This document shows, piece by piece, positions 17,110 through 44,232 of a stretch of DNA of 64,000 nucleotides. A program made the translations under genes and the position numbers. The notes beneath the pieces were generated by a model. It was not told where the DNA came from. It searched no databases and was given only the letters and a program-made list of their open reading frames with translations. Within the stretch, counting starts at the first letter, position 1. The number at the start of each line of letters is the position of its first letter. Origin of the DNA: a virus. The DNA lies in the IMG/VR virus record IMGVR_UViG_3300025012_000029, positions 1 to 64,000 of that record; one strand, written 5' to 3'.

Positions 17110-17690
17110 TTTTCCTCCAATAATTTTATTAATTCAACGTCATTTCGTTGATAAAGTGGATGAACAGGTCGTCCATCTTTTGTTTTACGGAGACAGTATA
17201 GCTTATCTGGGTGCCACATTGTCAAGAACTTTAATACCTTTGTTTCTCTTTCTTTTGACCATTTCATTGCTCCCCATGCACAAATTATTTTGTCCGCTTC
17301 GGATGATAATTTCGTTATCCATAAATCATTTTCCGGAAGTCCAATTATATCAATACCTATTTTCTCAGCATTTAACATATCTTTTGGATTTGTTGCTCTA
17401 TACGCATAAATGTTGGCAACCTTCACGACATTAAATCCCCAACGAACGGCATAACCAAAACATCTTCTCACAGTTGGATCAAAAACGTTTTCGTCAGCGG
17501 TACTAGGATTGAGCATTATGAATAATACAGTCTTCTTTTCCTCATCAGGAAGACTCCAGTCCCTCGATAACACATAACGATATGTTTTATTTGGGCTAAA
17601 TTCAGCAGTTCCCTTCATATGAGGAGGAATAATATTATTTTTTTCGCCAGATAACTGGATATTCAAATTCGAGGTACTGTCTGTTTCCAT
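17106..17690 (-). CDS. DUF1643 family protein
   Basis: About 194 residues from the ATG at 17690 (the frame is open to a TTG at 17735, which lies inside the neighbouring gene). It matches DUF1643 by TYRYVLSRDW, FIMLNPSTADENVFDPTVRR, ANIYAYRATNP, CAWG, and GRPVHPLY. The family is common in phages and bacteria; the function is not known. It overlaps the upstream small gene and dut. Confidence 0.75.
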   Translation of the reverse strand: METDSTSNLNIQLSGEKNNIIPPHMKGTAEFSPNKTYRYVLSRDWSLPDEEKKTVLFIMLNPSTADENVFDPTVRRCFGYAVRWGFNVVKVANIYAYRATNPKDMLNAEKIGIDIIGLPENDLWITKLSSEADKIICAWGAMKWSKERETKVLKFLTMWHPDKLYCLRKTKDGRPVHPLYQRNDVELIKLLEEK

Positions 17691-17895
17691 GAATAAACCA
17701 CCACACTTTCCATTTATTTTTCCTATATCCTTCAATAATGTTTGGCATTTGCTCTATCCATTCTGGGAAAATATCTATTAGTTTTCCATTGGACATTTCT
17801 TTCGAAGACCATTTTAATGGTGTAGAAATAGAATCGTTTATCAACTTATAAATTTCTCCATCATTCATGACATAAGATTTTATATTATTTTCCAT
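17635..17895 (-). CDS. Small hypothetical protein
   Basis: An 86-residue protein rich in Trp and aromatic residues in its C-terminal half. It begins just after the last polymerase fragment gene, and its end overlaps the DUF1643 frame. No family recognised. Confidence 0.45.
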   Translation of the reverse strand: MENNIKSYVMNDGEIYKLINDSISTPLKWSSKEMSNGKLIDIFPEWIEQMPNIIEGYRKNKWKVWWFIHGNRQYLEFEYPVIWRKK

Positions 17896-17899
17896 ATCT

Positions 17900-18895
17900 T
17901 CATCCTATTAGTTGTAGATTTTTATTTGGCCAATTTACAGAAAAACCATATTTCTCATCGAATTCAAGACGAGAAACGTACGGCCTGTTAAATAAAACAG
18001 TATCATTTTCTCTCGGACTCCAACATTTAATTTTAATATCTTTTGATGAAGCTCCATCGGTTACAAATAATTCCCAGTACATTCGATTTGTTTTAGTCAT
18101 TTTTTTGTCAATTCGCCTAGGAACAAACCAAACCAATGGACGTTCTGGATTAAATTCAGAAATAGGAGGAATGTTCTTGGCTTCTAATTTAGTCATCACC
18201 TTCTCATCGATAAATAATGAGATTGGAAACATGCTGGTAAGTTCAGCCATAATTAAAACTTTTTCTTCGTCTGTGAAATCTGGTTCATTCTTATATTGTT
18301 CTATCTTCGCATACATTTCTAGTCTGGATTTAGGTCTGTCAAAGACAGTGCTCATCCAAAAATGGCGAAGATGATTGAAGTTGTTGTTCATTAATTTGTT
18401 ACAGGCTCCACTACGAATCAGAACGTCCAAACATTTTTTGTTCAATTTTTGATATTTGACTTTAGGATTGAATAACAAATCTTCAACTGTTTTGAAAGGA
18501 CGATTTTCAATTATCTGTTCTGTTGCCTTAGAACCAAAACCCTTAATTGATGTCAATGGCTGGATGAGCGTTTTACCAGTTTTGGCCGGAAGCCATTCTG
18601 TTCCAGAAGTATTTACATCTACATCGGCAATCTTATATCCTATATTCTTAACCATACTCATAGCAGCGGCTCTTGTTTTTTCTGGTTCTTCGTTGAGATA
18701 AGAACATAACCACTCAGAGGGATGATAAGTTAAAAGATGGGCACATTGGAAAGAAATGATGCTGTAAGAGATAGCATGACTATTCGAAACAGAAATGTCG
18801 TTGGCAAAAAACGAATGTTCTTCGTGTTCTACTTCAATGTCATAAGTCTCATCTTCTCCAACAGGTATTACTTCAATAATGTCTTCTTCTCGCAT
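17900..18895 (-). CDS. dnaE: DNA polymerase III alpha, C-terminal fragment, with IntC of a split intein
   Basis: Residues 1-38 are an intein C-part: block F-like YDIEVEHEEHSFFANDI, ending SVSN. Residue +1 is Ser39, followed by the DnaE sequence HAISYSIISFQCAHLLTYHP, which in intact DnaE follows FNK (family 'FNKSHAxAYxxxSYQTAYLK'). The remainder carries the helix-hairpin-helix region (IKGFGSKATEQI) and ends early; tau- and clamp-binding regions of bacterial DnaE appear to be missing. It should be joined in trans to the product of 19893-21440. The start overlaps the intervening homing endonuclease gene by 28 bases. Confidence 0.9.
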   Translation of the reverse strand: MREEDIIEVIPVGEDETYDIEVEHEEHSFFANDISVSNSHAISYSIISFQCAHLLTYHPSEWLCSYLNEEPEKTRAAAMSMVKNIGYKIADVDVNTSGTEWLPAKTGKTLIQPLTSIKGFGSKATEQIIENRPFKTVEDLLFNPKVKYQKLNKKCLDVLIRSGACNKLMNNNFNHLRHFWMSTVFDRPKSRLEMYAKIEQYKNEPDFTDEEKVLIMAELTSMFPISLFIDEKVMTKLEAKNIPPISEFNPERPLVWFVPRRIDKKMTKTNRMYWELFVTDGASSKDIKIKCWSPRENDTVLFNRPYVSRLEFDEKYGFSVNWPNKNLQLIG

Positions 18896-19860
18896 AAATG
18901 TTCTTTTACTTTCTCAATGACTTTCTCAATGTCTCTTTCTATTTCAGAAACCCAAATACGTAAATAACTCCAACCATTTTTCAATAAAAATACATTTTTA
19001 TTTTTATCATTTACAGCATTCCTTTTCTGGCAGGGGAACTTTAGAGAAAAACCTTCCTCTTTGTTAGAATGCCAGAAATCTCCATCAACCTCAACAGCAA
19101 TCTTCCATTCTGGAAAGGTAATGTCTATTGTATAAAAACCAAATAAAAACTGACTAACTATTTCTTCTTCTGGAAAATGTTGTTGTAATAAAGAAAACAA
19201 CAATAGTTCTGGTTTAGAAGTTTTACATCTATTATTTGCTATGTGTTCGGCAGTTTTTCTACGCAACAAGTTTTTTGTTTCTTCTGTGTGGTTGTGTCCT
19301 TTGTGCGGTTTTCCTGTTTTACACCACTGTGAGTTTATTTCTTTTATTTCTTTTGCCTTTTCTTCTCCATAAAGTTCAACAAGAGTTTTTCCACGACATC
19401 GCAAAGCATTTTTTTCCCATGCTCCACTTTTTTCAACATTATCTAACCACTTCTTTTTCTTCTCTGGATCATTTAGAACTTTATGAATGGGGTTATTTTT
19501 TCCTATTCTTCCGTCTGCTATTCGTTTCATAGACTCGCTAGTATTTTTTGTAAGTCCCTTGTTCCAAATGGCAGGGAAACATTTATTTGAACAAAACTTT
19601 TTATCACACCTAGTTTTTACTTTTATTCCAACTATTTCAAATAGGATGGCGTTTATCAGTCTCCTAGAATCTATTTTCATCTCCTTACCACAAGTAACAC
19701 AATTAGTATTCAAGTTATTTATAAATACTTTTTTTCTATTTTCCACTTCATCAATAAGTTCTTGATGTTTGGCATAGTCATAAACATGTCTTTTGAAAAC
19801 AGACGCAGAATATTCATTACTACAAATAGGACACAAAACTTTTGTTCTACATTTGGGCAT
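18868..19860 (-). CDS. Free-standing homing endonuclease, Vsr/EDxHD-like with zinc fingers
   Basis: A 330-residue protein. The N-terminus has zinc-binding CPIC...H...H and CVTC ... CSNKC clusters (residues about 9-95). The middle has DNA-binding NUMOD-like segments (GKNNPIHK, HTEETKNLLRRK). The C-terminal nuclease domain reads IDITFPEWKIAVEVDGDFWH and ends with NGWSYLRIWVSEIE, the Vsr-like fold described for endonucleases in fractured genes. It sits exactly between the IntN-bearing and IntC-bearing polymerase genes, so it probably cuts intein-less alleles of this dnaE site and spreads the element. Confidence 0.85.
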   Translation of the reverse strand: MPKCRTKVLCPICSNEYSASVFKRHVYDYAKHQELIDEVENRKKVFINNLNTNCVTCGKEMKIDSRRLINAILFEIVGIKVKTRCDKKFCSNKCFPAIWNKGLTKNTSESMKRIADGRIGKNNPIHKVLNDPEKKKKWLDNVEKSGAWEKNALRCRGKTLVELYGEEKAKEIKEINSQWCKTGKPHKGHNHTEETKNLLRRKTAEHIANNRCKTSKPELLLFSLLQQHFPEEEIVSQFLFGFYTIDITFPEWKIAVEVDGDFWHSNKEEGFSLKFPCQKRNAVNDKNKNVFLLKNGWSYLRIWVSEIERDIEKVIEKVKEHLCEKKTLLK

Positions 19861-19892
19861 ACAATAAATAGTTCTGTGTGATAGAATAAAAC

Positions 19893-21440
19893 CTAGTTTT
19901 TTACCACAACTTTCAACTTTCTGCTTATTATCTCTTCCAAAGTTTTCATTCCTTCACAAGTTTGTAGTTTGTGATCAAGCGTGCAAGTCAAGGTTTTCCC
20001 AGAAGCAGTTTTTATTTTGTAAAGTTTTTTCTTGCCATTTTGGTAGACGCTCTTTATTTTCACAAAACCATTTACACTATTGACTTCTTCTCCAATTTTT
20101 ACATCTTTTATTTCTTTTTTACCCTCTCTGGTTTCTACTAAACTGCTTCCGTGAATACACTTGTTAAACGCGTAGCCGTTAAATGCCACCATATCTTGCC
20201 ACCATTTTTCGGCGTCATCCTTTGTCATCCCTTTTTCTGCACATCCATCAATAAATTTATTATGCAATCTATTTTTTACTTCTGCTTCTTTACCAGTTCC
20301 TTTTTTTGTCAACACTTTTCTCAACAAATTGGCATCATTTAGAGAAATATCTTTTCCAAGACTGTGCACCAAAGATGCTAACTGTTCTTGGAAAATAAGC
20401 AATCCGTAAGTTTTCTTTAAACATTTTTCCAAAATATCATTTTCAAACACTATTTTTTCAGGAAATTCCTTAAGAGAAAGATATCTTTTATCGACTTGCG
20501 CGCTCAAACAACCAGGTCTCCACACACTGGTTAAAACAGACAAATCGATCAAGCTCCTAGGTTTTGCCTGCTTTGTAAAATGCTGCATGCCTTTTGATGC
20601 GTCAAATTGAAAAATTCCTGCCCATTTTCCCTTATGAAAGACATTTTCATATACTTTTTGATCGTCAAAATCGATAACATTCGGGTGAAGCTTTGTATTA
20701 TAGAATTCTTTGATGTCAACGAAAGTAGGATTATCTTTTCCTTCTTTTTTCAAAATGAGTTTGATACAGTTTTCAAACATCCTTAAGGTTCCGAGTCCTA
20801 AAATATCAAATTTAATAAAACCCATTGGCTCTAAGTGTCTTACGTTTTGTCCTTCCGACCAAGGAGACTGTCTCACTCCTCCACTATAAATAAGAGGCAT
20901 ATGAGAAGGAAGATCTTCGCCTACAAGCAAACCTCCAGCATGTCTGCCACATGATCTAACTTGTCTGAAAAGATTCGCAACATGCTCTTCTATTTGTGGG
21001 TATTTTCCTAGAAATTTCCTAAATGACTCACTATATTTTAACACTTGCTCAAATGTTGGAGAAGTTGGAAGTACGCCAGATTTAATCCCCAACTCTTTTT
21101 TAATTTCTGGAACTGATTCCAAAAACATTATTGTTGTAATATCGTTAACTTCCTTGTATGGAATACCATAAAACTTTGAAATATCTTTAATGAGAGATTT
21201 CAATTGTAATGTATTCCAATTGGAAATGGAAACAACATTATCTTCTCCCCACATTTCAACAATGGTTCTCTTTACTTCATCGTTGTTGCCAACGTCAAAG
21301 TCAATATCTGGCATATCAGCAGATTTATCATTTCTAACATAGAAAGAAATGTTTTTATTTCTTACGATAGTTTGGGTTTGCGTAGGGATTGTTTGAATGA
21401 CAAACTTTCCTTCAATAGTTTCAACTTTTTTTATTAGCAT
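19893..21440 (-). CDS. dnaE: DNA polymerase III alpha, middle fragment, flanked by an atypical IntC-like head and a canonical IntN tail
   Basis: A 515-residue protein. Residues 1-38 (MLIKKVETIEGKFVIQTIPT ... FYVRND) occupy the place of an intein C-part but lack the His-Asn end and a Cys/Ser/Thr at +1. Then come the polymerase active-site motif MPDIDFD (residues 43-49), the palm and fingers (GILGLG-type LGLGTLRMFE, WRPGCL, FQEQL), to GYAFNK. At Cys428 a canonical IntN begins (CIHGSSLVETREG; block B GKTLTCTLDHKLQT), 88 residues to the stop. This part should trans-splice with the protein at 17900. It carries the catalytic Asp pair, so activity depends on its joining to the N-terminal fragment. 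Confidence 0.9.
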   Translation of the reverse strand: MLIKKVETIEGKFVIQTIPTQTQTIVRNKNISFYVRNDKSADMPDIDFDVGNNDEVKRTIVEMWGEDNVVSISNWNTLQLKSLIKDISKFYGIPYKEVNDITTIMFLESVPEIKKELGIKSGVLPTSPTFEQVLKYSESFRKFLGKYPQIEEHVANLFRQVRSCGRHAGGLLVGEDLPSHMPLIYSGGVRQSPWSEGQNVRHLEPMGFIKFDILGLGTLRMFENCIKLILKKEGKDNPTFVDIKEFYNTKLHPNVIDFDDQKVYENVFHKGKWAGIFQFDASKGMQHFTKQAKPRSLIDLSVLTSVWRPGCLSAQVDKRYLSLKEFPEKIVFENDILEKCLKKTYGLLIFQEQLASLVHSLGKDISLNDANLLRKVLTKKGTGKEAEVKNRLHNKFIDGCAEKGMTKDDAEKWWQDMVAFNGYAFNKCIHGSSLVETREGKKEIKDVKIGEEVNSVNGFVKIKSVYQNGKKKLYKIKTASGKTLTCTLDHKLQTCEGMKTLEEIISRKLKVVVKN

Positions 21441-22368
21441 TCTCTTCTCTTATTTTTGTTGTTCTATTTTTTACAGATGAAAATGTCCTGTAAGGAAAAA
21501 GCGTCTCTTGTATTTGTCTTACGGACATTTTACCATAATAAGTTCTCAATAGCAAGTCTTCTTCTTTTTCCCATTTTACTTCAAAATGCTTTTTCAGTCC
21601 TAATAAGTGTATTCTTTTTTCTATTCCTTCGTAAGTTCTGTAAGGTAAAAAAGTTTCCATTATTTTTCTACAAGACATTTTACTATGATTTTGTTTTAGA
21701 ATGTCTAGTTCTTCTGGAGTCCATTCCAAATAAGTTCCATAATCTTGTCTTATGGTTTTTACTTTATCCCATTTTCTATTCAGTTTTGGAACTTCTATTT
21801 TATTCAAGTGTTCTAATAACAAAAATGCTTTTCTTTTATTACAATAAAAAGTATAAACTGATTTTGTTTTTCTTAGATGTCCTATTTTTTCATTTAGTAT
21901 TTCTTCAAACCTTTTTATTATCCACTCAAGAAAAACTTTTGTTCCAACAATAGACAAATCAATGGAGTTTGTTTTTTTGTTAGAATAAAGACATCCATCA
22001 CCATCTATGTATCCCACAATAAAGGCATCAATAAAATCTCTATTTGTTATTGGCGGGAAAGCACAAAGAAATGTTTTGTTCGGAATAATGTTGTACTTCT
22101 GTTCAAGATCAAAACATACTTCTTTTGAAGAAAATGAAACAGACGAATAAAGGTACCCATCTTTATTCTCAAATATCCTAACAGGACAAGATAGTTCCAC
22201 AAACTTGGCAAATGATTCTAAGTGAGAATGGTCTTTTCGAGATAGACTCATAGAGAAACCACCCTTTCCAGAAACAGACCCATCAGCAGTAATAAAACCA
22301 GCCCAATAACAAGATACAATGTCAACTTCCGAAAAACAGTTTTCGTTCACAAAATACTTTTTTACCAT
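21421..22368 (-). CDS. Free-standing LAGLIDADG homing endonuclease with Myb-like repeats
   Basis: A 315-residue protein with two LAGLIDADG motifs, AGFITADGS (near residue 24) and VGYIDGDGC (near 119), so it acts as a monomer. The C-terminus has two SANT/Myb-like helix repeats (WTPEELDILKQNHSKMSCRK and WEKEEDLLLRTYYGKMSVRQ) that likely add DNA contacts. It lies between the N-terminal and middle polymerase genes, overlapping the latter by 20 bases. It is a different endonuclease class from the one in the second break, so the two breaks arose independently. Confidence 0.9.
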   Translation of the reverse strand: MVKKYFVNENCFSEVDIVSCYWAGFITADGSVSGKGGFSMSLSRKDHSHLESFAKFVELSCPVRIFENKDGYLYSSVSFSSKEVCFDLEQKYNIIPNKTFLCAFPPITNRDFIDAFIVGYIDGDGCLYSNKKTNSIDLSIVGTKVFLEWIIKRFEEILNEKIGHLRKTKSVYTFYCNKRKAFLLLEHLNKIEVPKLNRKWDKVKTIRQDYGTYLEWTPEELDILKQNHSKMSCRKIMETFLPYRTYEGIEKRIHLLGLKKHFEVKWEKEEDLLLRTYYGKMSVRQIQETLFPYRTFSSVKNRTTKIREENANKKS

Positions 22369-22375
22369 AACATAA

Positions 22376-23974
22376 CTAGTCTTTGTCTGGAGAAACTATT
22401 TCATCGTTTTCTAAAACGTTTGACGCTTTTTCCCACTGTTTTGTTCCATTTCTGCGTATTTTACATTGCGTATTGGGAGTTAGTAAAATCACTTTGCCAT
22501 CAGTGGTTTCTATTTTTATCATTTTACTTATTTTCGAAAAACTATTTGATTCTCCTAACGAATATCCTACATCATCTTCGGCATCGGAACGAAGGAATCT
22601 CTCAAACATCAAACCCCATTTTATTGGATTGACTTGGGTGATTCCAAGAACATAACTGACAAGGGAACCGGCGCCCGAACCTCTCCCACAGCCGGTAATC
22701 TGTAATGAATTTGCTTTATCAGCGATGGACTTCATTGTCAAAAAGTATCTGCTGAATCCTCTTCCTTGAATGACTTTGAGTTCTGTTTGAAGTTTCTTCT
22801 CGTATTCAGGTCTCTCTGTTGGGGACAAAGATAGTTTTTTTAGTCCCTCTTCTGCCATTTGTGTTAGAGCACTGTCATCAGTCATTCCATCAGGAACAAC
22901 AAAAGAAGGAAGACGAATAGTATTATCAGGCATAAAATCTTCAATCATGTTAAAAGCGATATGGTGTGCATTTGTAATAGATTTTAGGATCAAGTCAGAG
23001 TCATATTTTATACCATTCATAGAAGAATATTTTTCATATGCCTCCATCATTTGATCGCCATTCTTGGGATAAAGTTCATATCCAACTTCATCGATCGAAT
23101 CGGGCAAACTCTTTTGTTCTTTTTTGTTGAATCCTGGACGGAGGTTCTTATATAAGATTCTGTCTTTCCAAAGTTCAGGACGCGGATAATGACTATCTGC
23201 TGTTGATATTAATGGTAAATCATATTCTTTGGATAGTTGAATGATGTATTGATTGATATCGTGTTGTGCTGGAATATTATTCCATTGTAGTTCTCCAAAC
23301 CATCTGTCATTAAAGATCTTTTGCATTCGTTCTGTGGTATTGCGCATCGCATTAAGAATGATATCAGAGCCTTTTTCTAGATTTTCCCAATAATCTTGGG
23401 CATAAACTCCACCAAGGCAAGCACTGCTAGCAATTACTCCTTCATTATGTTTCTGTAAAAGTTCGTAATCAATTCGTGGAAACTTATAGAAACATGAAGG
23501 TTTAAAACTTTCAGAAATAAGACTGAAAATATTATTTAGCCCTATTTGGTTTTGGGCAAGAAGAATCAAATGTGCGCGAGCATTAAGAGGATTTTTCTTT
23601 TTCTTCGATGCTTCTTCGTCTTCAACAACTGTACCACCTTGTTCATCTTCTTCTTTTACTTTATCTTTGTTTTGTTTTTCTAGAGCTTTTGCTGATTTAA
23701 GCTCGCGCCAGTCTGCAAGAGATGGAATGAAGTATGCTTCAACTCCATATATAGGCTTAAAATTCTTGCCATCTGCTTTTAGTTTCTTAGAGTACAGGAT
23801 CTGATAAGCCGTGCCGTTCATATTCCCATGATCACTTAATGCCAGAGAATTCATTCCGTTATCTATTGCATAATCAATTGATTCGTTTGGATATCCAATA
23901 GCATCGAATGGACTTCCACATGTGGAATGAGCGTGAAGTCCGACAAAAGGAATTTTACTTTCTTTTTTTGACAT
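22376..23974 (-). CDS. dnaE: DNA polymerase III alpha, N-terminal fragment, with intein-like C-terminal tail
   Basis: A 532-residue protein. The PHP domain opens with GLHAHSTCGSPFD and continues through DHGNMNG, ADSHYPRPELWKD. The first palm motif is GCGRGSGAGSLVSYVLGITQ (residues 428-447), followed by FERFLRSD (residues 457-464). After that a 64-residue tail replaces the expected PDIDFD motif. It contains an intein block B-like stretch (TTDGKVILLTPNTQCKI then WEKAS and ENDEIV) but no Cys/Ser that clearly starts an intein block A. An acidic KE-rich insert is near residue 105-125. The catalytic Asp motif is on the next gene, so this product alone cannot polymerise. Confidence 0.9.
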   Translation of the reverse strand: MSKKESKIPFVGLHAHSTCGSPFDAIGYPNESIDYAIDNGMNSLALSDHGNMNGTAYQILYSKKLKADGKNFKPIYGVEAYFIPSLADWRELKSAKALEKQNKDKVKEEDEQGGTVVEDEEASKKKKNPLNARAHLILLAQNQIGLNNIFSLISESFKPSCFYKFPRIDYELLQKHNEGVIASSACLGGVYAQDYWENLEKGSDIILNAMRNTTERMQKIFNDRWFGELQWNNIPAQHDINQYIIQLSKEYDLPLISTADSHYPRPELWKDRILYKNLRPGFNKKEQKSLPDSIDEVGYELYPKNGDQMMEAYEKYSSMNGIKYDSDLILKSITNAHHIAFNMIEDFMPDNTIRLPSFVVPDGMTDDSALTQMAEEGLKKLSLSPTERPEYEKKLQTELKVIQGRGFSRYFLTMKSIADKANSLQITGCGRGSGAGSLVSYVLGITQVNPIKWGLMFERFLRSDAEDDVGYSLGESNSFSKISKMIKIETTDGKVILLTPNTQCKIRRNGTKQWEKASNVLENDEIVSPDKD

Positions 23975-24224
23975 TAATGTTCTTTGCTTTCTTATCTCCC
24001 TCTAAGATAGAGGGCTCAATTGTTTGAAGAGTCTTCGAATTGGAGAAACCAGGTATGGAGTAAATTTGTGAATCCCAGAAATAATCACAGCTAAATTGTT
24101 TTAATACTAAACAATAGGGCGGATCGACAAAAAATGATTGAAGTCTTCCGGGTTTCGCTATATGTCTATAGCATATATCTTTTTTGGGACAATTATTGCC
24201 AGGGCACATGGTAATATCAGGCAC
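23955..24224 (-). CDS. Hypothetical Cys-rich protein
   Basis: An 89-residue protein with the pattern MCPGNNCPKKDICYRH near the N-terminus and a later CDYFWD, which together could hold zinc or an Fe-S cluster; the C-terminus is basic. It starts with GTG at 24224, or with ATG five codons in. It overlaps the start of the polymerase N-terminal gene by 20 bases, so the two are probably co-translated. A candidate promoter lies just upstream. Confidence 0.5.
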   Translation of the reverse strand: MPDITMCPGNNCPKKDICYRHIAKPGRLQSFFVDPPYCLVLKQFSCDYFWDSQIYSIPGFSNSKTLQTIEPSILEGDKKAKNINVKKRK

Positions 24225-24230
24225 AAGACA

Positions 24231-24259
24231 ACACTACATTAAGAACGGACAATTGTCAA
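24231..24259 (-). promoter_or_regulatory. Candidate sigma70-like promoter for the dnaE cluster
   Basis: TTGACA (24259-24254), a 17-base spacer, TAGTGT (24236-24231, weak -10). The -35 overlaps the perfect palindrome GACAATTGTC, a possible operator. The -10 ends only about seven bases before the GTG start of the downstream gene. Confidence 0.35.
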
Positions 24260-24261
24260 AA

Positions 24262-24519
24262 TTAAACGTCCATTTCTTTGCTAAAATATCGCTCCAGTGT
24301 TCGTAAGCGCTGTATACATACAAACGTACTATAAGCAGACACCAATCCAATCGATAATGATAAAAATCCCAAGGAAATATCAATAATTGGCATCATTGTC
24401 CACGGAACCAACCTAGATTTTTCTATAATTGAACCCACCTCATATCCACACAGCCACAATACAATTGAAGATGTTAGTAAATTATCGATAAATATAAATA
24501 AATTTTTCATCTGCTTCAC
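24262..24519 (-). CDS. Hypothetical two-pass membrane protein
   Basis: An 85-residue protein with two hydrophobic segments (residues about 7-28 and 44-66) and a charged C-terminal tail. ATGA overlap with the upstream gene. Function unknown. Confidence 0.5.
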   Translation of the reverse strand: MKQMKNLFIFIDNLLTSSIVLWLCGYEVGSIIEKSRLVPWTMMPIIDISLGFLSLSIGLVSAYSTFVCIQRLRTLERYFSKEMDV

Positions 24520-32420: not shown

Positions 32421-35400
32421 TTAAGATCCACATGAACCTCCTTTATTCATAGCGCATGCGTCTCCATATTCTAAATATGTTTCTCCAACATGCTTCATAG
32501 CAAGAGAATATTTTACTGGGGTAAGAGGCTGTCCACCACGAGCACCATCTGGGTAACAGGTAATTCCTCTCAATTTTGGAAGATAATTTATTAAAATATC
32601 TCCAAATTTTCTAACAGTATCTTCATTGTTATCAGCAGAACCCCATGGAGGAAGGTTGATAGTGGAACTGATCCCATGGTCAACAAATCGTTGTACCCAA
32701 GCTTGGAATTCTATTCTTCGTTCAACGTTCTTTGCTAAATCATACGCATCTTCTATTGAATCTGGATCGAGGTTATTTTTTTCTATTAGACGTTTTGCAG
32801 TAGGATCCAACACATATTGATATTCAATCAATTCTGGTCCTTTTTTATAACGTCTTTTATAACTAACGCAGAAAATTGGCTCAATGCCCGTTGTAGTTTC
32901 CGACACAATTCCTATAGTTCCATTTGGAGCAATTGCTCTAGTTTTAATCGGACTAGTTAATTCCCACTTTTCAGCATATTCATGAGCAATTTCTGTACTA
33001 GTGCTGTAAATTTTCAAATACTGTTCTAGTTCTGGGTCGGGTCCGTACTTTTTTCCTCTCATAAGCAACCATTCATGAATGCCCATTAATCCGAGTCCTA
33101 GGCGCCTATTCTTCGAACGAACTTGATCTACTTTGGCATAAGGAACGTCTGAATAGACAGTGCCAGCCAACAAAAAACAAGTCCCTAATTCTACTAGGTC
33201 TTTCATTTCTTCTAGCGAAGATACTCTGGCAAGATTAATACTGCCAAGATTGCAAATATCTGAATCATCGCGCGATGTTACCTCAGTGCATTGACCAGTC
33301 AAAACACCATCAAAAACTCCAGTATGATTTTTAGGTTCATTAAAACAATAAACATTTTCTTCTATACCTCCTTCAGAAACTGATACTACAAAAACAAATT
33401 GACTAGCGTCTCTGTTTGGAGATTTGTCAAACGACAAACGTTCACATTTTAAACCCAATTCTTTCAAATTTTGTATTTGTTGCGCGCCGATTAGCAATCT
33501 ATAAAGATCTTTACAATAATATTCTTTTAGTCCTCCTTCCGCATCGGGAAGCATTCTAAATCCAGCTTTGTGTCCTAATGTTACTTTACTATTTATTCCT
33601 ATCGTAGAAAGCATCTTCTGAGCATCTAAAAGAAAATTTTTATCAACGGAGCCTATTTGGCATCCGCCTTCTTTTAATTCAGTTCCATCTCCATCTATCA
33701 ATCCAGCCAACCAATTTAATTTTCCATTCAAGTTCCACTCAAGTGGAACAAAAGATTTCAAATATTTTTCAAAATCTGGTCTAACAGTCGTTTTACTATT
33801 GCTGCTGTGAAAATTTTTATTTTCTTTTATCGAAAGGCGACTCAAACAGCAATATTTTGTGTCGTACACTGAAAAGAAATTGTAATCGTCCATTCCTTCG
33901 GCAGAAAGGAAGCCTTGTGTGTACGCTTCTTTTGCATCAACATCCTCTCCTTCTTTTATTATTGGAAATGTCCCTTTAATCAATTTCATTCCTGGCTGAA
34001 GATTGTAGGCTTCCACTTTTTCAGAAGCTCCATGATAATCTTTTGAAATAATAAATTTATGATATTCAGTGCATCTCAACACCCTTCCGTCACTTAATAC
34101 AACATCAACCATTGGTTGCATTCGTCCAGTTAGTTTTATTTCAACATTTGACCATTCGAACCCGTTCCATACGTCAATTGACTGGTTAACCAATGATGAA
34201 ATTGGTCGATAACCATTTTTAGTTAGAATTTCCGTTTCGCCCGAAACACATGCATTCCTCAGGGTTTCACCGGAATTATCACCAATATCTACTGAAAATC
34301 CTGGCTCACCAGTTTCTAGCATATTTCTGACGACCAACCAATAAATTGCTTGAGAATGGGAATGTTGTGGATGTTTCTCGTCATAGAAGGCTTTAAAAAA
34401 AACATCATCTAATAGAACAGAAATATTCGTCATATCCAATGGAGCGGGAAAATTAAAATCCTTCTTTTTTAAAGATTTGACATCCTCAGTCCAATCTTTG
34501 AGTTTAACAAATTTATATATGTCGGCATGGCTCCAATTTAGTCCAGACCAAATTGCCGAGTTATGCACAAGATATCCATTGCAGAAAAATTGATTTTTGT
34601 TTTCTACTTCAATATCATATGTTTCAACGATTCTTCCTTCCTCGATTCCTAAAATTTTAATAGGGGTAAAATTTAAATCTTTTTTAATAACACGTTCTAT
34701 CATTTCAATACTAACGGCAACATTTTTGTCATGATGAAGATTTCTAGGTCTTTTTTCAAATGATGCATTAATCAAACTGCCATCAAAAGAATAAGAAAAT
34801 TGTTCTTTCGTTCCAGAATTTTCATAAATGTCCCCTTTCAAAATAAAAGATCCAATTAGTTTTTTAAGTTTTAGAAGTTGCTTGGTATTACAAACATTTA
34901 ATTGATATAAAGATTTCCATTTTCCAATTTCTTTTCTTACAAGTTTAATTCTGGAAACAATTCCCAATGACGCCAATAGTGATTGTAATTGATTTAAGAA
35001 TTCTGGATAAATCGACGATGCAATATTTATTGGGCGAGACGATAAACTTCCATCTGAATCAACAATTCCAGCAATGTATGCACACCTAATTTCTGGCCTC
35101 GCACACATTATACATTCTGGTACGTCAATTGAAACATTTGGTTTTTTAAACCACGATTGCAAATAAGTAGCCAACTGCACAGACGAGCATTTAACATTCC
35201 ATAGTTTTCCATCACCTGGTGATGATATAACGTTTACTCCAAATCTTTCCAATTGTTTTATAGCTTTATCTTTAATTTCTGGGTAATCAAAAGAACAAGC
35301 AATACTCACTCGGCCGTGAAGTTTGTTTTGTTTATCTTTGCCCAAATAAGCATAGCCATCTCCGTGAATCAACCCCAACAACCAAGCTATACCAGAGTCT

Positions 35401-36248
35401 AGTTCGGGAATTTTTATATCTATTATAGACGTGCAATGAATTGATTTTTCATACGAAAAATTTGGTAATTTTGTAGGACCGAATTCCAGCAATTTTCCAT
35501 TAAAAATCAATCTATCTTGGTTCGAAAGGTCTTTGGCTTTTTTCCACTCAAATTCTCCGAAACAATTAGTCAACACAGCCACTCTGTGATTTTCAGTGCA
35601 TTCAAAAAATCCAGTTTGAGTTTTAATTTTTATAGTTTTTTGCTGTCCTTGATCAAATATGTTCAACACTTTTTCAAATCCATCAAATGTTTGAACCAAA
35701 TCTTCAGTTGTTATATCTTCTATCTTTTTTAACCCATACAAAGTATGAACTAGAGAGCCTTTCGGGAGACACCTTCTCGATCCTCCCTGCATAACTCCTC
35801 TACCAACTTCATTAATCATCTGCATAAGTGCCGTTGGTCCGGTTGCCTTGCCTCCGGTTTTTCTAATTGGTTTCCCTTCCGGTCTTATTTTTGAATAATC
35901 AACTCCAATTCCTGCCCCTGTCATTAAAGCCATCGACGACTTATGTAATAAATCCGACCAACCTTCACGAGAATCTTCTACACTCAGCATAAGACAATTT
36001 TGAGTTTGGTGATATGGGCGCCCAGAGGCATATAGGTATCGTCCTCCAGGAATGAATTTTCTATCTCTTATTGCTATATGAACTCTTTCAGATAGAGACT
36101 TTGAAGCGTTAACTGACTTCATAACATGTTTTGCCACTCTGTAGGATATGTTATCCCAATTTTCCAAAGTTCCATCTTTTAATGGATGTGCATATCGCTG
36201 CTCTGTTATTGTTTTCGCAAAAACACTCATATCGTTTTCAAAATTCAT
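32421..36248 (-). CDS. nrdJ: Class II (adenosylcobalamin-dependent) ribonucleotide reductase with two inteins
   Basis: A 1275-residue precursor. Exteins: residues 1-159, 564-666 and 987-1275, together about 551 residues. Visible motifs are PGGRYLYASG, Cys85 in QTQNCLML, CTEVTSRDDSDICNLGSINL, APNGTIGIVSE, and a Cys-rich end (CAMNKGGSCGS), the redox pair of class II enzymes. It reduces ribonucleotides with a B12 radical and works with or without oxygen. Intein 1 spans residues 160-563 and intein 2 residues 667-986; both carry LAGLIDADG endonuclease domains. The gene is bounded by the helicase C-part (one-base overlap) and a small unknown gene. Confidence 0.93.
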   Translation of the reverse strand: MNFENDMSVFAKTITEQRYAHPLKDGTLENWDNISYRVAKHVMKSVNASKSLSERVHIAIRDRKFIPGGRYLYASGRPYHQTQNCLMLSVEDSREGWSDLLHKSSMALMTGAGIGVDYSKIRPEGKPIRKTGGKATGPTALMQMINEVGRGVMQGGSRRCLPKGSLVHTLYGLKKIEDITTEDLVQTFDGFEKVLNIFDQGQQKTIKIKTQTGFFECTENHRVAVLTNCFGEFEWKKAKDLSNQDRLIFNGKLLEFGPTKLPNFSYEKSIHCTSIIDIKIPELDSGIAWLLGLIHGDGYAYLGKDKQNKLHGRVSIACSFDYPEIKDKAIKQLERFGVNVISSPGDGKLWNVKCSSVQLATYLQSWFKKPNVSIDVPECIMCARPEIRCAYIAGIVDSDGSLSSRPINIASSIYPEFLNQLQSLLASLGIVSRIKLVRKEIGKWKSLYQLNVCNTKQLLKLKKLIGSFILKGDIYENSGTKEQFSYSFDGSLINASFEKRPRNLHHDKNVAVSIEMIERVIKKDLNFTPIKILGIEEGRIVETYDIEVENKNQFFCNGYLVHNSAIWSGLNWSHADIYKFVKLKDWTEDVKSLKKKDFNFPAPLDMTNISVLLDDVFFKAFYDEKHPQHSHSQAIYWLVVRNMLETGEPGFSVDIGDNSGETLRNACVSGETEILTKNGYRPISSLVNQSIDVWNGFEWSNVEIKLTGRMQPMVDVVLSDGRVLRCTEYHKFIISKDYHGASEKVEAYNLQPGMKLIKGTFPIIKEGEDVDAKEAYTQGFLSAEGMDDYNFFSVYDTKYCCLSRLSIKENKNFHSSNSKTTVRPDFEKYLKSFVPLEWNLNGKLNWLAGLIDGDGTELKEGGCQIGSVDKNFLLDAQKMLSTIGINSKVTLGHKAGFRMLPDAEGGLKEYYCKDLYRLLIGAQQIQNLKELGLKCERLSFDKSPNRDASQFVFVVSVSEGGIEENVYCFNEPKNHTGVFDGVLTGQCTEVTSRDDSDICNLGSINLARVSSLEEMKDLVELGTCFLLAGTVYSDVPYAKVDQVRSKNRRLGLGLMGIHEWLLMRGKKYGPDPELEQYLKIYSTSTEIAHEYAEKWELTSPIKTRAIAPNGTIGIVSETTTGIEPIFCVSYKRRYKKGPELIEYQYVLDPTAKRLIEKNNLDPDSIEDAYDLAKNVERRIEFQAWVQRFVDHGISSTINLPPWGSADNNEDTVRKFGDILINYLPKLRGITCYPDGARGGQPLTPVKYSLAMKHVGETYLEYGDACAMNKGGSCGS
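33291..34250 (-). other. NrdJ intein 2 (320 residues, ends in Gln)
   Basis: It starts at Cys667 (CVSGETEILTKNGYRP) after LRNA and ends VFDGVLTGQ before Cys987 (CTEVTSRDD). The last residue is Gln instead of Asn and the penultimate is Gly instead of His. LAGLIDADG motifs: LAGLIDGDGT (clear) and GFLSAEGM (degenerate). The insertion point is the conserved N-(P/A)-C-T-E motif, where other NrdJ inteins are known. Confidence 0.88.
34560..35771 (-). other. NrdJ intein 1 (404 residues, LAGLIDADG)
   Basis: It starts at Cys160 (CLPKGSLVHTLYG) after GGSRR and ends LVHN before Ser564 (SAIWSG). Block B is TGFFECTENHRVAV; endonuclease motifs are LLGLIHGDGY and IAGIVDSDGS; block F is YDIEVENKNQFFCNGYLVHN. 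All splice residues are canonical, so it is probably active. Confidence 0.9.
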
Positions 36249-36709
36249 TAAACAATTCCTCCATTATTTTCTTTATATTTCTTGTATTTTGCTCTCATGC
36301 GGCGTTTTTGCTCTTCCACGTCCACTAACGATGAAATATCTTTACGAGGATCAAAATCTCCCAAAATACGTATATCTACATTTGATGGATCCATAAAAAT
36401 ATTAAATGTCATTCCATCTGGACCATTTCTATTTTTGCAGACAGACAATCTTCCTGTATTTTTGTTTTTATCTTCTTGCGTTCTCGCAAGTCCAAGAGTA
36501 AGGTATGAGCCAAAATTTTTATTTAGTGCTTCTGATGTTTGTTCCATTTGTACGGTATTTGAACTCAAACCTGAATTATGGGAATATATATCATTTGCAA
36601 AAAAATAGTGATGCTTTTCCAAACATATATCGATTGTATCTTCTTCGTCACATTCTTCAATGTTTGTTATTTCCATCAAATCAAAATCGTTTAAATTAAG
36701 TTTATCCAT
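36248..36709 (-). CDS. Replicative helicase (gp41/DnaB), C-terminal fragment with IntC
   Basis: Residues 1-45 form the intein C-part (IDICLEKHHYFFANDIYSHN), with canonical His-Asn end. Ser46 starts the C-extein, SGLSSNTVQMEQTSEALNKN, followed by GLARTQEDKNKNTGRLSVCK, the C-terminal RecA-fold region of gp41/DnaB helicases (sensor and arginine-finger area). It should be trans-spliced to the product of 37727-39058. The first residues overlap the homing endonuclease gene by eight bases; the last overlaps nrdJ by one. Confidence 0.92.
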   Translation of the reverse strand: MDKLNLNDFDLMEITNIEECDEEDTIDICLEKHHYFFANDIYSHNSGLSSNTVQMEQTSEALNKNFGSYLTLGLARTQEDKNKNTGRLSVCKNRNGPDGMTFNIFMDPSNVDIRILGDFDPRKDISSLVDVEEQKRRMRAKYKKYKENNGGIV

Positions 36710-37727
36710 TTAAAAACTCTACTATCTTATCAATTGTACCGTAAGGATCTTTTTTGTAATTTTTATCGTTAATCCTTAGTGTTGAAAATCCTCTTTTTGT
36801 TAATATTTCATCTCTTTCCTTATCCTTGTCTTCGTTGTTTTTATGCCAATAATTTCCGTCAAATTCAATAATTTTATTTTCATATAAAAAATCTAATGAA
36901 TAAAACTTAATATATTTTCCATCTTTATATATTTTAATTATTTTTTCCCCGTTACATTCTTTAAAAAATGTCATCTCTTTCTTCAAATCTAACCTTTGCA
37001 CAACGTCCCAAAATAATTTCTGAGAAATTTTCGAAAACCCAACACTATCTCGATTAGATGCTGCCTTCTCAGAAAGAGTACGCATTTTGTCTTTGTACTG
37101 ATCCCATTTTTCCTTTCCTAATGTCTCGCCAAAATCTTTCACAAATTTTTCAAGGGAAAAAGCATATTTTTGTTTTTCTGATTTTTTATTCCATCTAATT
37201 AAAGCTTCTTCTTTGCCGTGCTTTATAAACAAACTTTCATGAGAAAGTCCATTATCCCATTTTCTGTCAAGTTTTCTTTTTTCAATAGAACTTTTCCATT
37301 TTTCTAAATAAGAAGAATGTTTTTCTTTTGCCGCATCCTCTCCTATTCTTTCTGAAAGATTCTGCAAATTGTGCCAATTTTTTTGTTTTATTAAATTTTC
37401 ATAATATTCGATACCGTGTTTTTTAATAATAATTTCTTTATTATTCTTACGCTTGTTTGTCTGCGAATTCAAGATTTCTTCCCATCTGTCGCCATAACGT
37501 ATTTTGTATACTTCTTCTGTCATACAATTTCTTCCAAATTTTCTAGATGCTTCAATTCTCTCTAGCCAATCCCCATCGACATCATATTTTGTAAAATTTA
37601 ATATCAAGAATTTCTTATTTTTAAAATCTTTTCTTGACAAATTTTCATAGATTTTTTTTATTTGAAAAATTTGCTCATCGCTTAATGACAAATCTCGCAA
37701 CCATAAATAATTTTTTATAAAGTTCAT
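36702..37727 (-). CDS. Free-standing Vsr-like homing endonuclease between helicase halves
   Basis: A 341-residue, Lys-rich protein. The C-terminal nuclease reads KFYSLDFLYENKIIEFDGNY then WHKN, and ends RGFSTLRINDKNYK, like the Vsr/EDxHD endonucleases found in fractured genes. The middle holds repeated helix segments with KHG(K/I)E and ExWDxYK patterns, possibly DNA-binding repeats. It overlaps both helicase pieces by a few bases, which is typical for a gene inserted as a unit into a former intein. Confidence 0.85.
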   Translation of the reverse strand: MNFIKNYLWLRDLSLSDEQIFQIKKIYENLSRKDFKNKKFLILNFTKYDVDGDWLERIEASRKFGRNCMTEEVYKIRYGDRWEEILNSQTNKRKNNKEIIIKKHGIEYYENLIKQKNWHNLQNLSERIGEDAAKEKHSSYLEKWKSSIEKRKLDRKWDNGLSHESLFIKHGKEEALIRWNKKSEKQKYAFSLEKFVKDFGETLGKEKWDQYKDKMRTLSEKAASNRDSVGFSKISQKLFWDVVQRLDLKKEMTFFKECNGEKIIKIYKDGKYIKFYSLDFLYENKIIEFDGNYWHKNNEDKDKERDEILTKRGFSTLRINDKNYKKDPYGTIDKIVEFLNG

Positions 37728-39058
37728 TATTTTTTTATCAAAAATTTATCCCCAATTTTTAATCCAGACTCTAAAGACTTATCCCCACTATCCGTTGGAA
37801 AAATATGTTTTTTAGAAACTTTCACAGACAATCCGTTTTTTAGCGTTATTTTATAGACTTTTTGGCGAGAGGAAAAAATATCAATAATTTTTTCGTAACC
37901 ATAAACAGTTTTTGTCATCATGCCTATCTTAGATTGTCCGATTTCAATTGTATGTTCTTTTTGATCTTCTCCTAATATATAAATAGGAGTATCAACAGAA
38001 AAACACCTATTTGTTTGCGAAGCGGTCCAGCCAACTATTTGATCTTCTTGACAAACTGCTTCAAACTCATCATAAGTTTCACCTATTTCATAACGTAATT
38101 CTTTTCTTATAGAAGAAGATTTGAGGAGATCGAGATAGTCTAGTTCGATCATATCCGGGATAAATCCTTGACTTTTAAGACGAGAAAGATGATTTTTTAC
38201 TGTCATCATCGATGCGCTCTTTTTTGGATACTGTTTGATTATTAATTGACCAGTGATTTTAGTCAACTCTTCTAAAACTTTTTCTTTGTGGTTGCGCAAT
38301 TCATCGATAGGTATTCCAGTCAAACAAGAATCAAATCTAAGTCCAATTACTTCTGCCGATAATTCAAGGGTGTAATAAACAACATTTTGTCCTCGTTTTA
38401 GTGCTTGTACGCCCAAATGAACGAGGCATAAACTTTTACCTGCGCCTGTCGGCGCTAAAATCAAACCATATTCGCCTCGACCTAAGCCACCGCTTGTAAG
38501 TTCATCAAGTCGATCCCACCCCGTCGGAATGGGATTACGAACATTTTCAACGTAACGTTTTTCGAAATCTTTGATAAAATCATGCCCAGTGTCAATTTCT
38601 CCTCCAGCTTTTAGAGCAGTATTGATAACTTTGCTAATTTCGTCAAACGAATTCGTTTTGAGGAGAGAAGCAGATTTAATCATAGCTTCGTGCAACTTTT
38701 GTTTTCTGCAGAAATCTAACGCTTCATTCTGAATGAAATTTCCATCCTCAATATGATCGGAAGCTAACATGCGGGCATAAAAGTCTCTTACTTGTTTTTG
38801 AAGAATTTCATTCTCTTTTTCTAAGGATGTCCGAAGAATTATCTCCATTGTATCTCTACTAGGATGAACTTTATATTGTTTTTTATAATCAAAAATTCTT
38901 GAAACAAATCCTTGGAGATATCTTGATTCAAAATATTCAACATTTAATACTTCAATCATTCTATCGGCAAAGACTCTATCATCCAATATTAAAAAAGCAA
39001 GTCTCTCTTGAAATGAGCGGCCGAAGGTTGAAAAAGTCGGAGCATCAACTATATTCAT
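37727..39058 (-). CDS. Replicative helicase (gp41/DnaB), N-terminal fragment with IntN
   Basis: A 443-residue protein. It has an N-terminal helical domain, a Walker A motif LAPTGAGKS (residues 201-209), Walker B-like MIELDYLDLL, and ASQTNR. Cys352 then starts an intein N-part of 92 residues (CFSVDTPIYILGE; block B GLSVKVSKKHIFPT), like the gp41-type split inteins. The helicase moves 5'-3' on the lagging strand as a hexameric ring. A promoter (39080-39108) lies upstream. Neither half alone has a full ATPase motor domain, so splicing should be essential. Confidence 0.93.
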   Translation of the reverse strand: MNIVDAPTFSTFGRSFQERLAFLILDDRVFADRMIEVLNVEYFESRYLQGFVSRIFDYKKQYKVHPSRDTMEIILRTSLEKENEILQKQVRDFYARMLASDHIEDGNFIQNEALDFCRKQKLHEAMIKSASLLKTNSFDEISKVINTALKAGGEIDTGHDFIKDFEKRYVENVRNPIPTGWDRLDELTSGGLGRGEYGLILAPTGAGKSLCLVHLGVQALKRGQNVVYYTLELSAEVIGLRFDSCLTGIPIDELRNHKEKVLEELTKITGQLIIKQYPKKSASMMTVKNHLSRLKSQGFIPDMIELDYLDLLKSSSIRKELRYEIGETYDEFEAVCQEDQIVGWTASQTNRCFSVDTPIYILGEDQKEHTIEIGQSKIGMMTKTVYGYEKIIDIFSSRQKVYKITLKNGLSVKVSKKHIFPTDSGDKSLESGLKIGDKFLIKK

Positions 39059-42171: not shown

Positions 42172-43035
42172 CTACTGATCTTTATTGATTTGAATTTCAG
42201 ATGTGTATTTTAGACAATACACGATGTCGTACTCGTAATTAGTTGCGTATATGCCGTACGAAATACGGTTTATTTCACTTGGCATTTTACTCTTAACTAT
42301 ATTCTTTACGCTACTCAAAATACTTGGATCATTCTTCAAACTTTTTTCAGAGTACCCAAAATAATACACGGCATCGGTGCTTCTGTCAAGATCAAAAAAC
42401 ATTTTTTCTTCATTTTCTTTTGGATCAAGAATGCCAAATGTAGCGATGCGCGCTGCAATGGGTGGAACATGAAATGTATTAAAAACTGGCTTAATTTCTT
42501 GTAACTTACATATTGTGTTGAATGTAGATGCGATTGTATCATTAATTTTTTCATTGTAAGAAAGTAATGGCAAACGTCCAAGACACTTATCAATTTCTTC
42601 ATTAGAAGCTAAATACAACATTTCAAATAAACCAGATCTGGCAGATTCTTGAAAAACACCAAACACCGTTCGTTGTTTGATCGCATTAACTCCAACTATC
42701 ATATCTAATGCTGGCTGAATATATAAAACATATATTTTAAAATTGTTTTGAAGTTGACCTAGTAGGTTGAGCGAACAAAAAGAAAGATTACCTCCCCCTG
42801 AAGTTATTAGCAATAAATTTCCTTTGAGTCCTTTGAAATGTTTTTTAACTGATGGGAACTTTTCATCATAATCTTCAAGATGTTCAAATTTAGGAACTTG
42901 AATGTGTTTGAAATTGTCATAGGAACATTTTTCACAGTCTATCGAAAAAAATTTAGATTTCATTTTCAGTAGCGAAAGAAGATGAGCAATGCGATGCCCC
43001 GTGCCTCCAAGTCCTATGGCAACATCAAAAATCAT
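42172..43035 (-). CDS. Divergent tubulin/FtsZ-like protein (candidate)
   Basis: A 287-residue protein starting DVAIGLGGTGHRIAHLL, like the first loop of tubulin-like GTPases (G-G-x-G), with LLLITSGGGNLSFCSLNLLG (near residue 76), which sits where the tubulin G-box GGGTG(S/T)G would be but is altered. After it come FGVFQESARSGLF and FNTFHVPPIAARIATFG. I have the impression that marine T4-like phages carry related proteins. Nucleotide binding is uncertain because the G-box is atypical. It overlaps the family A polymerase gene by 11 bases. Confidence 0.5.
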   Translation of the reverse strand: MIFDVAIGLGGTGHRIAHLLSLLKMKSKFFSIDCEKCSYDNFKHIQVPKFEHLEDYDEKFPSVKKHFKGLKGNLLLITSGGGNLSFCSLNLLGQLQNNFKIYVLYIQPALDMIVGVNAIKQRTVFGVFQESARSGLFEMLYLASNEEIDKCLGRLPLLSYNEKINDTIASTFNTICKLQEIKPVFNTFHVPPIAARIATFGILDPKENEEKMFFDLDRSTDAVYYFGYSEKSLKNDPSILSSVKNIVKSKMPSEINRISYGIYATNYEYDIVYCLKYTSEIQINKDQ

Positions 43036-44224
43036 ATTTGATATAATCCTCCATTTCGCCTAAGTTTCTTCCTATTTTACATGTCACTCTAAAGATTCCA
43101 AATTCTGTATTTCCAAACATTTTAGCAATTGTGTTAACCATTTCTTTCTCTGGAGCGTATAAATCAATAATGACGCTATCATGAAGCAAAGCAACAATTT
43201 TAGATTTATACTTATTGCGGGACATAAACTGATCAATTTCTATGACTTTCCGCGAAAATATATCCCATGTGGTGCTCTGAATTAAATAACTCAAAGCATG
43301 TCGTTCGTCACTTTCAATTTCTCTTCCATATGGATTATGAATTTTATGTCCATCCCAATATTCTGATAAAACATTCTTTTTATTGTATGCTACATCTATT
43401 TTTGGAACTCCAGAAGAAAGATTATTGTCTCCATTATAAAACCACGCAAAAAATTTCTTCTTGACATCTTCTCTACTCAATCCTTGTTCAAAAAATGTCG
43501 AATGCCAATCATGTAAATCAATTTCAGGCTGCTCTTGTTTATTCAAACTAAGGAATGTACGAACTTCGGCTGCGTTGTAATCTATTTCAACAAATAAATG
43601 ATTATTTGGAACCAAATATTTACGCATTTTCTTATCGAGAGTCAGAATAGGAAAAGAATTCTTTTTAGTGGAAAGCCTGCCCGTGATTGTACCAAAATTT
43701 TTGTATTTAATTGTTTTTAAACCATTTTTGAGTTTATTCCTAAATCTTCTAACTCTGTCGTCAAATATATTTTTATCCATTTCAACAAAATCAACATTAA
43801 CAGTTTGTTTAGCTATTTTGGCAATTAATGTCTCCAAATCAACCAGATAATCATAATTTTTTGGACGCTCATAGGAAGAAATAACGTGAGATGTTATTTC
43901 GTTTTTAACGTTGAAGAAATTATGAATAAAATATTCCGGAAGTAAATTATAAAAATTATCTCCTATGTCGGACATTTTTGCTTCTTTGAAAGATTTCTGA
44001 AATGAATGATGTAATTTCTTCAGTCCAATCCATTTGGAATTCAAAAATTCTGGGCAAATATCATCTAATGTTTTACCGCCACAATATAATTGTGCGTACT
44101 CAATATTCAATCCATCAAGCATTGGATTATATGCCCAAGTATGAGTAAGCAAAGAACCATTGGCAGTAGGTTTCAATTGTCCGTCAATGTAAATATTTTT
44201 ACCACCAGCAACTTGAAATAACAT
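43025..44224 (-). CDS. Short family A DNA polymerase (palm/fingers only)
   Basis: A 399-residue protein with family A motifs: TGRLSTKKNSFPIL (residues 181-194), motif A EIDYNAAEVR with catalytic Asp215, motif B-like REDVKKKFFAWFYNG (near 251), the PIQG-like ALSYLIQSTTWDIF, and motif C LLHDSVIIDL with Asp349, where the usual His-Asp-Glu is His-Asp-Ser. No 3'-5' exonuclease or 5' nuclease domain is present, so it is much shorter than PolA (about 930) or T7 polymerase (about 700). It may serve repair, translesion or primer removal alongside the split DnaE. Confidence 0.85.
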   Translation of the reverse strand: MLFQVAGGKNIYIDGQLKPTANGSLLTHTWAYNPMLDGLNIEYAQLYCGGKTLDDICPEFLNSKWIGLKKLHHSFQKSFKEAKMSDIGDNFYNLLPEYFIHNFFNVKNEITSHVISSYERPKNYDYLVDLETLIAKIAKQTVNVDFVEMDKNIFDDRVRRFRNKLKNGLKTIKYKNFGTITGRLSTKKNSFPILTLDKKMRKYLVPNNHLFVEIDYNAAEVRTFLSLNKQEQPEIDLHDWHSTFFEQGLSREDVKKKFFAWFYNGDNNLSSGVPKIDVAYNKKNVLSEYWDGHKIHNPYGREIESDERHALSYLIQSTTWDIFSRKVIEIDQFMSRNKYKSKIVALLHDSVIIDLYAPEKEMVNTIAKMFGNTEFGIFRVTCKIGRNLGEMEDYIKYDF

Positions 44225-44232
44225 TCAAACCC

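What the first reader, a model, noticed from the sequence alone, without database searches (positions are those of the whole stretch)
17900..23974. DNA polymerase III alpha gene broken into three, with a different homing endonuclease in each break
Three consecutive genes carry the N-terminal (PHP and first palm), middle (catalytic PDIDFD) and C-terminal parts of one DnaE. A free-standing homing endonuclease gene sits in each break: LAGLIDADG with Myb repeats in the first, Vsr/EDxHD-like in the second. The second break is a canonical split intein (Cys428 IntN; Asn38|Ser39 IntC, restoring FNK-SHA). This extends the 'fractured gene' layout, known from environmental phage sequences, to a double break in a replicase.
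Basis: partly seen in the sequence, partly recalled or inferred. Interest (0 to 1): 0.85.

Follow-up and report, generated by a model that had tools for sequence, protein, structure and literature searches.

The report
Phage replicase in pieces, dead-intein joint
This phage makes its DNA-copying enzyme as three separate proteins: two are probably welded by a working split intein of a known kind, while the third appears to be held on by the two halves of an intein that has lost the ability to splice, a joint also found in gut and marine phages and in prophages of Bacteroides and its relatives.

Summary
In detail: three minus-strand genes carry one DnaE, with a LAGLIDADG/Myb nuclease gene in break 1 and a Vsr/DUF559-type nuclease gene in break 2. 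Break 2 is a typical gp41-1-like split intein (Cys428; Asn38|Ser39), a known "fractured gene" arrangement also present in related phages. The DnaE-N tail and DnaE-M head look like the two halves of a Hint (intein) fold without conserved splicing residues. The same split, just before the catalytic PDIDFD, occurs in three marine phage lineages and in 52 IMG/VR or phage records plus 12 bacterial genome contigs of Bacteroidales type, including the complete chromosome of Bacteroides fragilis Q1F2. One relative carries the domain unbroken inside a 1153-aa DnaE; its predicted structure matches only inteins and Hint domains among the top 50 PDB hits. Tail and head are under purifying selection (dN/dS about 0.11). 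One lineage lost the nuclease but kept the split. Most likely the dead split intein is a retained docking domain, making a two-chain replicase (N plus spliced M-C). Docking itself is inferred, not shown. Three- and four-piece DnaE genes occur in other phages.

The parts
22376..23974 (-). DnaE-N gene (532 aa): PHP domain, first part of palm up to FERFLRSDAED, then the N-half of the dead Hint domain
22379..22588 (-). Dead Hint N-half (tail, about residues 463-532: SDAEDDVGYSLGES...LTPNTQCKIRR...ENDEIVSPDKD)
   Evidence: HMM of marine tails E 7.8e-7, of Bacteroidales tails E 4.6e-4; profile A9 best PDB hits are inteins, E 2.4e-4; hhalign E 7e-10 between the tail families
21421..22368 (-). HEG1: free-standing LAGLIDADG nuclease with C-terminal Myb-like repeats, in break 1
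   Evidence: 33% identical homologues at the same break in L171 and L173, E 1e-47 to 5e-50
19893..21440 (-). DnaE-M gene (515 aa): Hint C-half, catalytic palm (PDIDFD), fingers, then active IntN
21312..21440 (-). Candidate dead Hint C-half (head, residues 1-43: MLIKKVETIEGKFVIQTIPTQTQTIVRNKNISFYVRN|DKSADM before PDIDFD)
   Evidence: position and length equal those of conserved heads in L171/L173/L207; too divergent for HMM detection on its own
19896..20159 (-). Active split intein IntN (88 aa, Cys428 = C1, TxxH block B)
   Evidence: TIGR01445 4.5e-7; best solved match gp41-1 intein E 1.3e-8
18868..19860 (-). HEG2: Vsr/DUF559-type nuclease (EDxHD-like), in break 2
   Evidence: similar gene at the same break in L029
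17900..18895 (-). DnaE-C gene (331 aa): active IntC, then C-terminal DnaE with HHH
18782..18895 (-). Active split intein IntC (38 aa ending VSN|S39HA)
   Evidence: TIGR01443 over cut-off

Best explanation
DnaE is made as three chains. M and C carry a normal gp41-1-like split intein and should be ligated by protein trans-splicing. N and M are not ligated: they carry the two halves of an intein-derived Hint fold that has lost its splicing residues. The halves should still find each other, as split intein halves do, and hold the palm together next to the catalytic PDIDFD motif as a permanent docking domain. The mature enzyme would be a two-chain replicase: N plus spliced M-C. HEG1 is a mobile gene that sits in the already tolerated gap and can be lost without closing the split. 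Shown by sequence: gene layout, homology of the N tails, their similarity to inteins, absence of catalytic residues, purifying selection in the Bacteroidales family, and loss of HEG1 with retention of the split in L207/L210. Inferred: association of the halves, lack of splicing, and activity of the assembled enzyme.
For: Same break with homologous N tails in three marine lineages and 52 viral/phage records plus 12 genome contigs of Bacteroidales type. Unbroken version in L148: AlphaFold pLDDT 74, pTM 0.64; all top 50 Foldseek PDB hits are inteins/Hint, best E 2.8e-4, prob 1.00. Sequence profile containing the window tail: best PDB hits are inteins, E 2.4e-4. Tail families match each other by hhalign E 7e-10. 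Block-B His replaced in all 37 unique Bacteroidales tails and all 4 marine/window tails; position 1 is A/C/S or A/K/S; no Asn near the end of the 27 unique Bacteroidales heads; +1 residues in the marine group are T/P/P/D. dN/dS about 0.11 in tail and head. L207 gap keeps only a relic of HEG1. Split genes with active products are known: NrdA of Aeh1, gp43A/B of phage 25 (PMC2988022).
Against: The window C-half is too divergent to be recognised by an HMM alone; its assignment rests on position, length and the conserved RN..(x)MPDID context. The window tail folded alone is only partly confident (pLDDT 64) and Foldseek gives no significant hit, though inteins are the hits with the highest probability. 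The window and its marine relatives keep Asn at the expected intein end, and the window has Ser at the expected first position, so residual chemistry cannot be excluded by sequence. No experiment shows docking.
Confidence: 0.66

Rival explanations
1. Break 1 is an active but unusual (cysteine-less, shortened) split intein that does splice N to M, giving one full-length DnaE.
For: Window has Ser at the length-preserving first position and Asn at the last; Asn is conserved in the three marine heads. Cysteine-less split inteins exist in phage polymerases (Aes123 PolB1, PMC11923092), and that intein is among the profile hits (9hth).
Against: The +1 residue is D, T, P or P, so a nucleophile is missing in three of four; position 1 is S, A, K or K; the block-B His is gone in all; the stretch between blocks A and B is about 25 aa shorter than in ordinary inteins; the homologous Bacteroidales family has none of the residues; flanking DnaE loop residues are kept on both sides, so no single clean junction is evident.
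Confidence: 0.13
2. Break 1 is simply a gene split by a homing endonuclease, and the pieces assemble through the native DnaE interface; the tails are leftovers without function.
For: Precedents without inteins: Aeh1 NrdA (PMC2988022). HEG1 lies exactly between the pieces.
Against: Tails and heads are conserved across distant phages and under purifying selection, even where no nuclease is present (adjacent genes in L146/L147/L152/L155; helicase gene in between in L111; fused in L148).
Confidence: 0.14
3. The pieces are joined at RNA level by a self-splicing intron, as reported for Bacillus phage G, or the gene is a decaying pseudogene with another polymerase in charge.
For: Phage G dnaE is interrupted near the same site (introns in its polymerase gene in PMC7824862). 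A family A polymerase fragment is encoded at 43025-44224.
Against: No Rfam match at E up to 1 in 17500-24300 (Rfam also missed the phage G interruption, so this is weak). Both tails are coding and homologous to protein domains elsewhere. All three pieces have open frames with catalytic motifs kept.
Confidence: 0.07

Closest known systems
Fractured genes with split inteins and free-standing homing endonucleases (Dassa et al. 2009; paper not held, known from memory and citations); gp41-1 split intein
   Same: Break 2 in full: essential replication gene, split intein, Vsr/EDxHD-like nuclease gene in the break; closest solved intein is gp41-1. The helicase gene in the same window is split the same way.
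   Different: Break 1 has a nuclease in the gap but the split intein is catalytically dead; a live and a dead split intein sit in one gene.
Genes-in-pieces NrdA of phage Aeh1; gp43A/43B of Aeromonas phage 25 (PMC2988022)
   Same: A homing endonuclease gene separates two parts of an essential enzyme; the parts work as separate chains.
   Different: Here the added tails are homologous to an intein (Hint) fold; in Aeh1 no intein is involved.
Split minimal Pol III alpha of group 2.2 jumbo phages (PMC7824862)
   Same: Pol III alpha catalytic core made as two proteins.
   Different: Those are distant minimal versions encoded far apart; no Hint halves or nuclease gene reported.
Npu/Ssp DnaE split intein of cyanobacteria
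   Same: Split intein in DnaE in the same region.
   Different: Window break 2 is at FNK|SHA, about 3 residues downstream of the Npu-type Y|CFNK site; L103 has the Npu-type site.

Membership tests
Split intein (break 2) | Nucleophile at position 1 and block-B TxxH in IntN | tested here: met
   C428 and TLDH; TIGR01445 4.5e-7
Split intein (break 2) | Block F/G with terminal Asn and +1 Cys/Ser/Thr | tested here: met
   ANDISVSN|S; TIGR01443 over cut-off; penultimate residue is Ser instead of His, also Ser in L029
Split intein (break 2) | Trans-splicing activity | not testable with these tools
   needs co-expression
Split intein (break 1) | Hint fold | tested here: met
   relative L148: Foldseek top 50 all inteins/Hint; profile with window tail hits inteins E 2.4e-4
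Split intein (break 1) | Conserved nucleophile at position 1 and block-B His | tested here: not met
   position 1 A/C/S (37 tails) or S/A/K/K (marine); His-equivalent A/S in 37 of 37, T/V/L/M in the marine group
Split intein (break 1) | Terminal Asn plus +1 nucleophile | tested here: not met
   Asn kept in the marine group but +1 is T/P/P/D; no Asn in the last 8 residues of 27 Bacteroidales heads
Fractured gene with free-standing homing endonuclease | Essential gene broken at an intein with a nuclease gene in the gap | tested here: met
   both breaks; at break 1 only if a dead intein is allowed
EDxHD homing endonuclease (HEG2) | Vsr-like nuclease fold with EDxHD motif | tested here: inconclusive
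   DUF559/Vsr matches; the motif itself was not verified against a family alignment
Group I intron | Conserved ribozyme core | tested here: not met
   no Rfam match at E up to 1, but the test missed phage G as well

The most novel reading that the evidence does not exclude
A splicing-dead split intein has been domesticated, across marine and Bacteroidales phages, as a permanent protein-protein docking module that holds the two halves of a replicative DNA polymerase together at its active site, and the homing endonuclease in the gap is a later, dispensable passenger.
Probability: 0.55. Interest if true: 0.85.

Novelty: new variant of a known kind. Interest (0 to 1): 0.72.

Why it matters
Inteins are normally seen as parasites that must splice out. 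A dead intein kept under selection as the joint of an essential enzyme would be a clear case of a selfish element becoming structural. It makes a testable question of how genes broken by homing endonucleases stay functional once splicing is lost, and it offers a natural, non-reacting split pair for protein engineering. It also means that many Bacteroides-type phages and prophages encode a two-chain Pol III alpha that annotation may miss: in BS-TP1 the second half carries no annotated CDS.

Tried and rejected
Close relatives of HEG1 and HEG2 searched directly in viral contigs: none; HEG1 homologues were found only through the M-head search. Tail-only search of viral contigs gave intact DnaE and other layouts, not the break. 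Rfam for introns in the window and in phage G: nothing. Phage G considered as a break-1 homologue and rejected: its tail (GKLPKQYWASKVNLAQGCAA) is unrelated and introns in its polymerase gene are reported. L092/L093 hits were chance or intact. The gut phage MT835494 has an apparent frameshift at the head (7-nt insertion TAAGGCG relative to BS-TP1); treated as an assembly problem because isolate genomes (L251-L253) are open there. Several MAFFT runs misaligned heads to tails (A3-A5) and were discarded. Foldseek of the window tail alone is not significant and is not used as support.

Full report
Observation. Together the three DnaE pieces cover the Pol III alpha profile without large gaps: TIGR00594 positions 1-392, 397-750 and 746-892. 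The window is part of a 201-kb viral record; no second dnaE was found in it. Related marine viral DnaE genes (55-59% identical) are nearly all single ORFs of about 1130-1170 aa, and they show what an unbroken gene looks like at both sites: FSRFLRSDAKD-YPDIDYD at break 1 and YGFNKSHAVSYS at break 2.

Break 2. IntN (88 aa, Cys428) and IntC (38 aa, ending SN|S) pass the NCBIfam intein cut-offs. The closest solved relative is the gp41-1 intein, E 1.3e-8. Viral locus L029 has the same break with a comparable nuclease gene in the gap; in L061 the C gene lies about 12 kb away. The site is about three residues downstream of the cyanobacterial DnaE intein site. This is a fractured gene of known type. 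The window's DnaB-like helicase gene is fractured the same way: 37727-39058, nuclease gene 36702-37727, 36248-36709.

Break 1. DnaE-N continues past FERFLRSDAED for some 60-70 residues, and DnaE-M starts about 43 residues before PDIDFD. Neither tail nor head matches Pfam on its own. Three marine lineages have the same layout: L171 and L172/L173 with a LAGLIDADG/Myb gene 33% identical to HEG1 (L172 shows only its M-C part), and L207/L210 with only a 132-bp gap that still encodes the C-terminal stub of that nuclease. Their N tails recognise the window tail (E 7.8e-7) and, through profiles, a second, much larger family.

The larger family. Starting from gut phage MT835494 and Bacteroides phage BS-TP1, 52 viral/phage loci and 12 genome contigs from Bacteroides, Palleniella, Prevotella, Dysgonomonas, Butyricimonas and other Bacteroidales carry DnaE with this tail; nearly all are broken at the same place, with a conserved head on the second piece. 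B. fragilis Q1F2 is a complete chromosome, so this is not an assembly artefact. What lies in the gap varies: a Dda-like helicase gene, a methylase gene, HNH genes, or nothing. In L148 the two halves are joined in one open frame.

What the domain is. The L148 domain was modelled (pLDDT 74, pTM 0.64). Every one of the top 50 PDB matches is an intein or Hint domain. By sequence alone, a profile containing the window tail has inteins as its best PDB matches, E 2.4e-4. The halves correspond to the usual split at the endonuclease position.

Why it is probably dead. The block-B His is replaced in all 37 unique Bacteroidales tails (Ala or Ser) and in the window and marine tails (T/V/L/M). Position 1 is not conserved as a nucleophile. 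The Bacteroidales heads have no Asn near the junction. The marine heads keep Asn, but the next residue is T, P or P, and D in the window. Yet tails and heads evolve under purifying selection, pooled dN/dS about 0.11 compared with 0.04-0.07 for the neighbouring DnaE parts (pooled pairs are not all independent). A useless remnant would not be kept like this, and its persistence where the nuclease is gone argues that the split itself is tolerated.

Mechanism. I infer that the two halves associate as split inteins do, and stay. In the window this gives a two-chain enzyme after M-C splicing. The weak points are the window C-half, which is recognised by position and not by profile, and the absence of any binding data.

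Relation to known systems. It works like the genes-in-pieces enzymes of T4-like phages (PMC2988022) but through an intein-derived domain. Break 1 is not counted as a functional split intein because the defining catalytic residues were tested and not met. I found no paper describing a non-splicing split intein used as an assembly domain, but the library holds only open-licence papers and the key fractured-gene paper (Dassa 2009) was not held.

Noticed in passing
36248-39058: The DnaB/gp41-like helicase is also a fractured gene: helicase-N with IntN (TNR|CFSV), a DUF559-type nuclease gene in the gap, and IntC (SHN|SGLSS) with helicase-C.
   Followed up: partly
32421-36248: B12-dependent-type ribonucleotide reductase gene (1275 aa) carries an intein with LAGLIDADG nuclease.
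   Followed up: no
43025-45438: A 399-aa protein with a C-terminal family A polymerase match next to a 401-aa protein without matches; the phage may also carry a (split?) PolA.
   Followed up: no
G000:C1:81090-81326, 93515-94054, 161249-161617: Elsewhere in the same 201-kb record: another intein-like stretch in a 1204-aa frame and two more relatives of HEG2.
   Followed up: no
L103:4093-10360 (also L104): A DnaE in four ORFs: an HNH gene between the second and third, and an Npu-site split intein with a LAGLIDADG domain fused to IntN.
   Followed up: partly
L207:2771-5779: A canonical split intein at another DnaE site (SA|CLGG) with a Vsr/EDxHD-like nuclease gene in the gap, in the same gene as a dead break-1 module.
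   Followed up: partly
L111:8549-10177 (BS-TP1 record): The second half of DnaE in Bacteroides phage BS-TP1 has no annotated CDS in the deposited record.
   Followed up: yes
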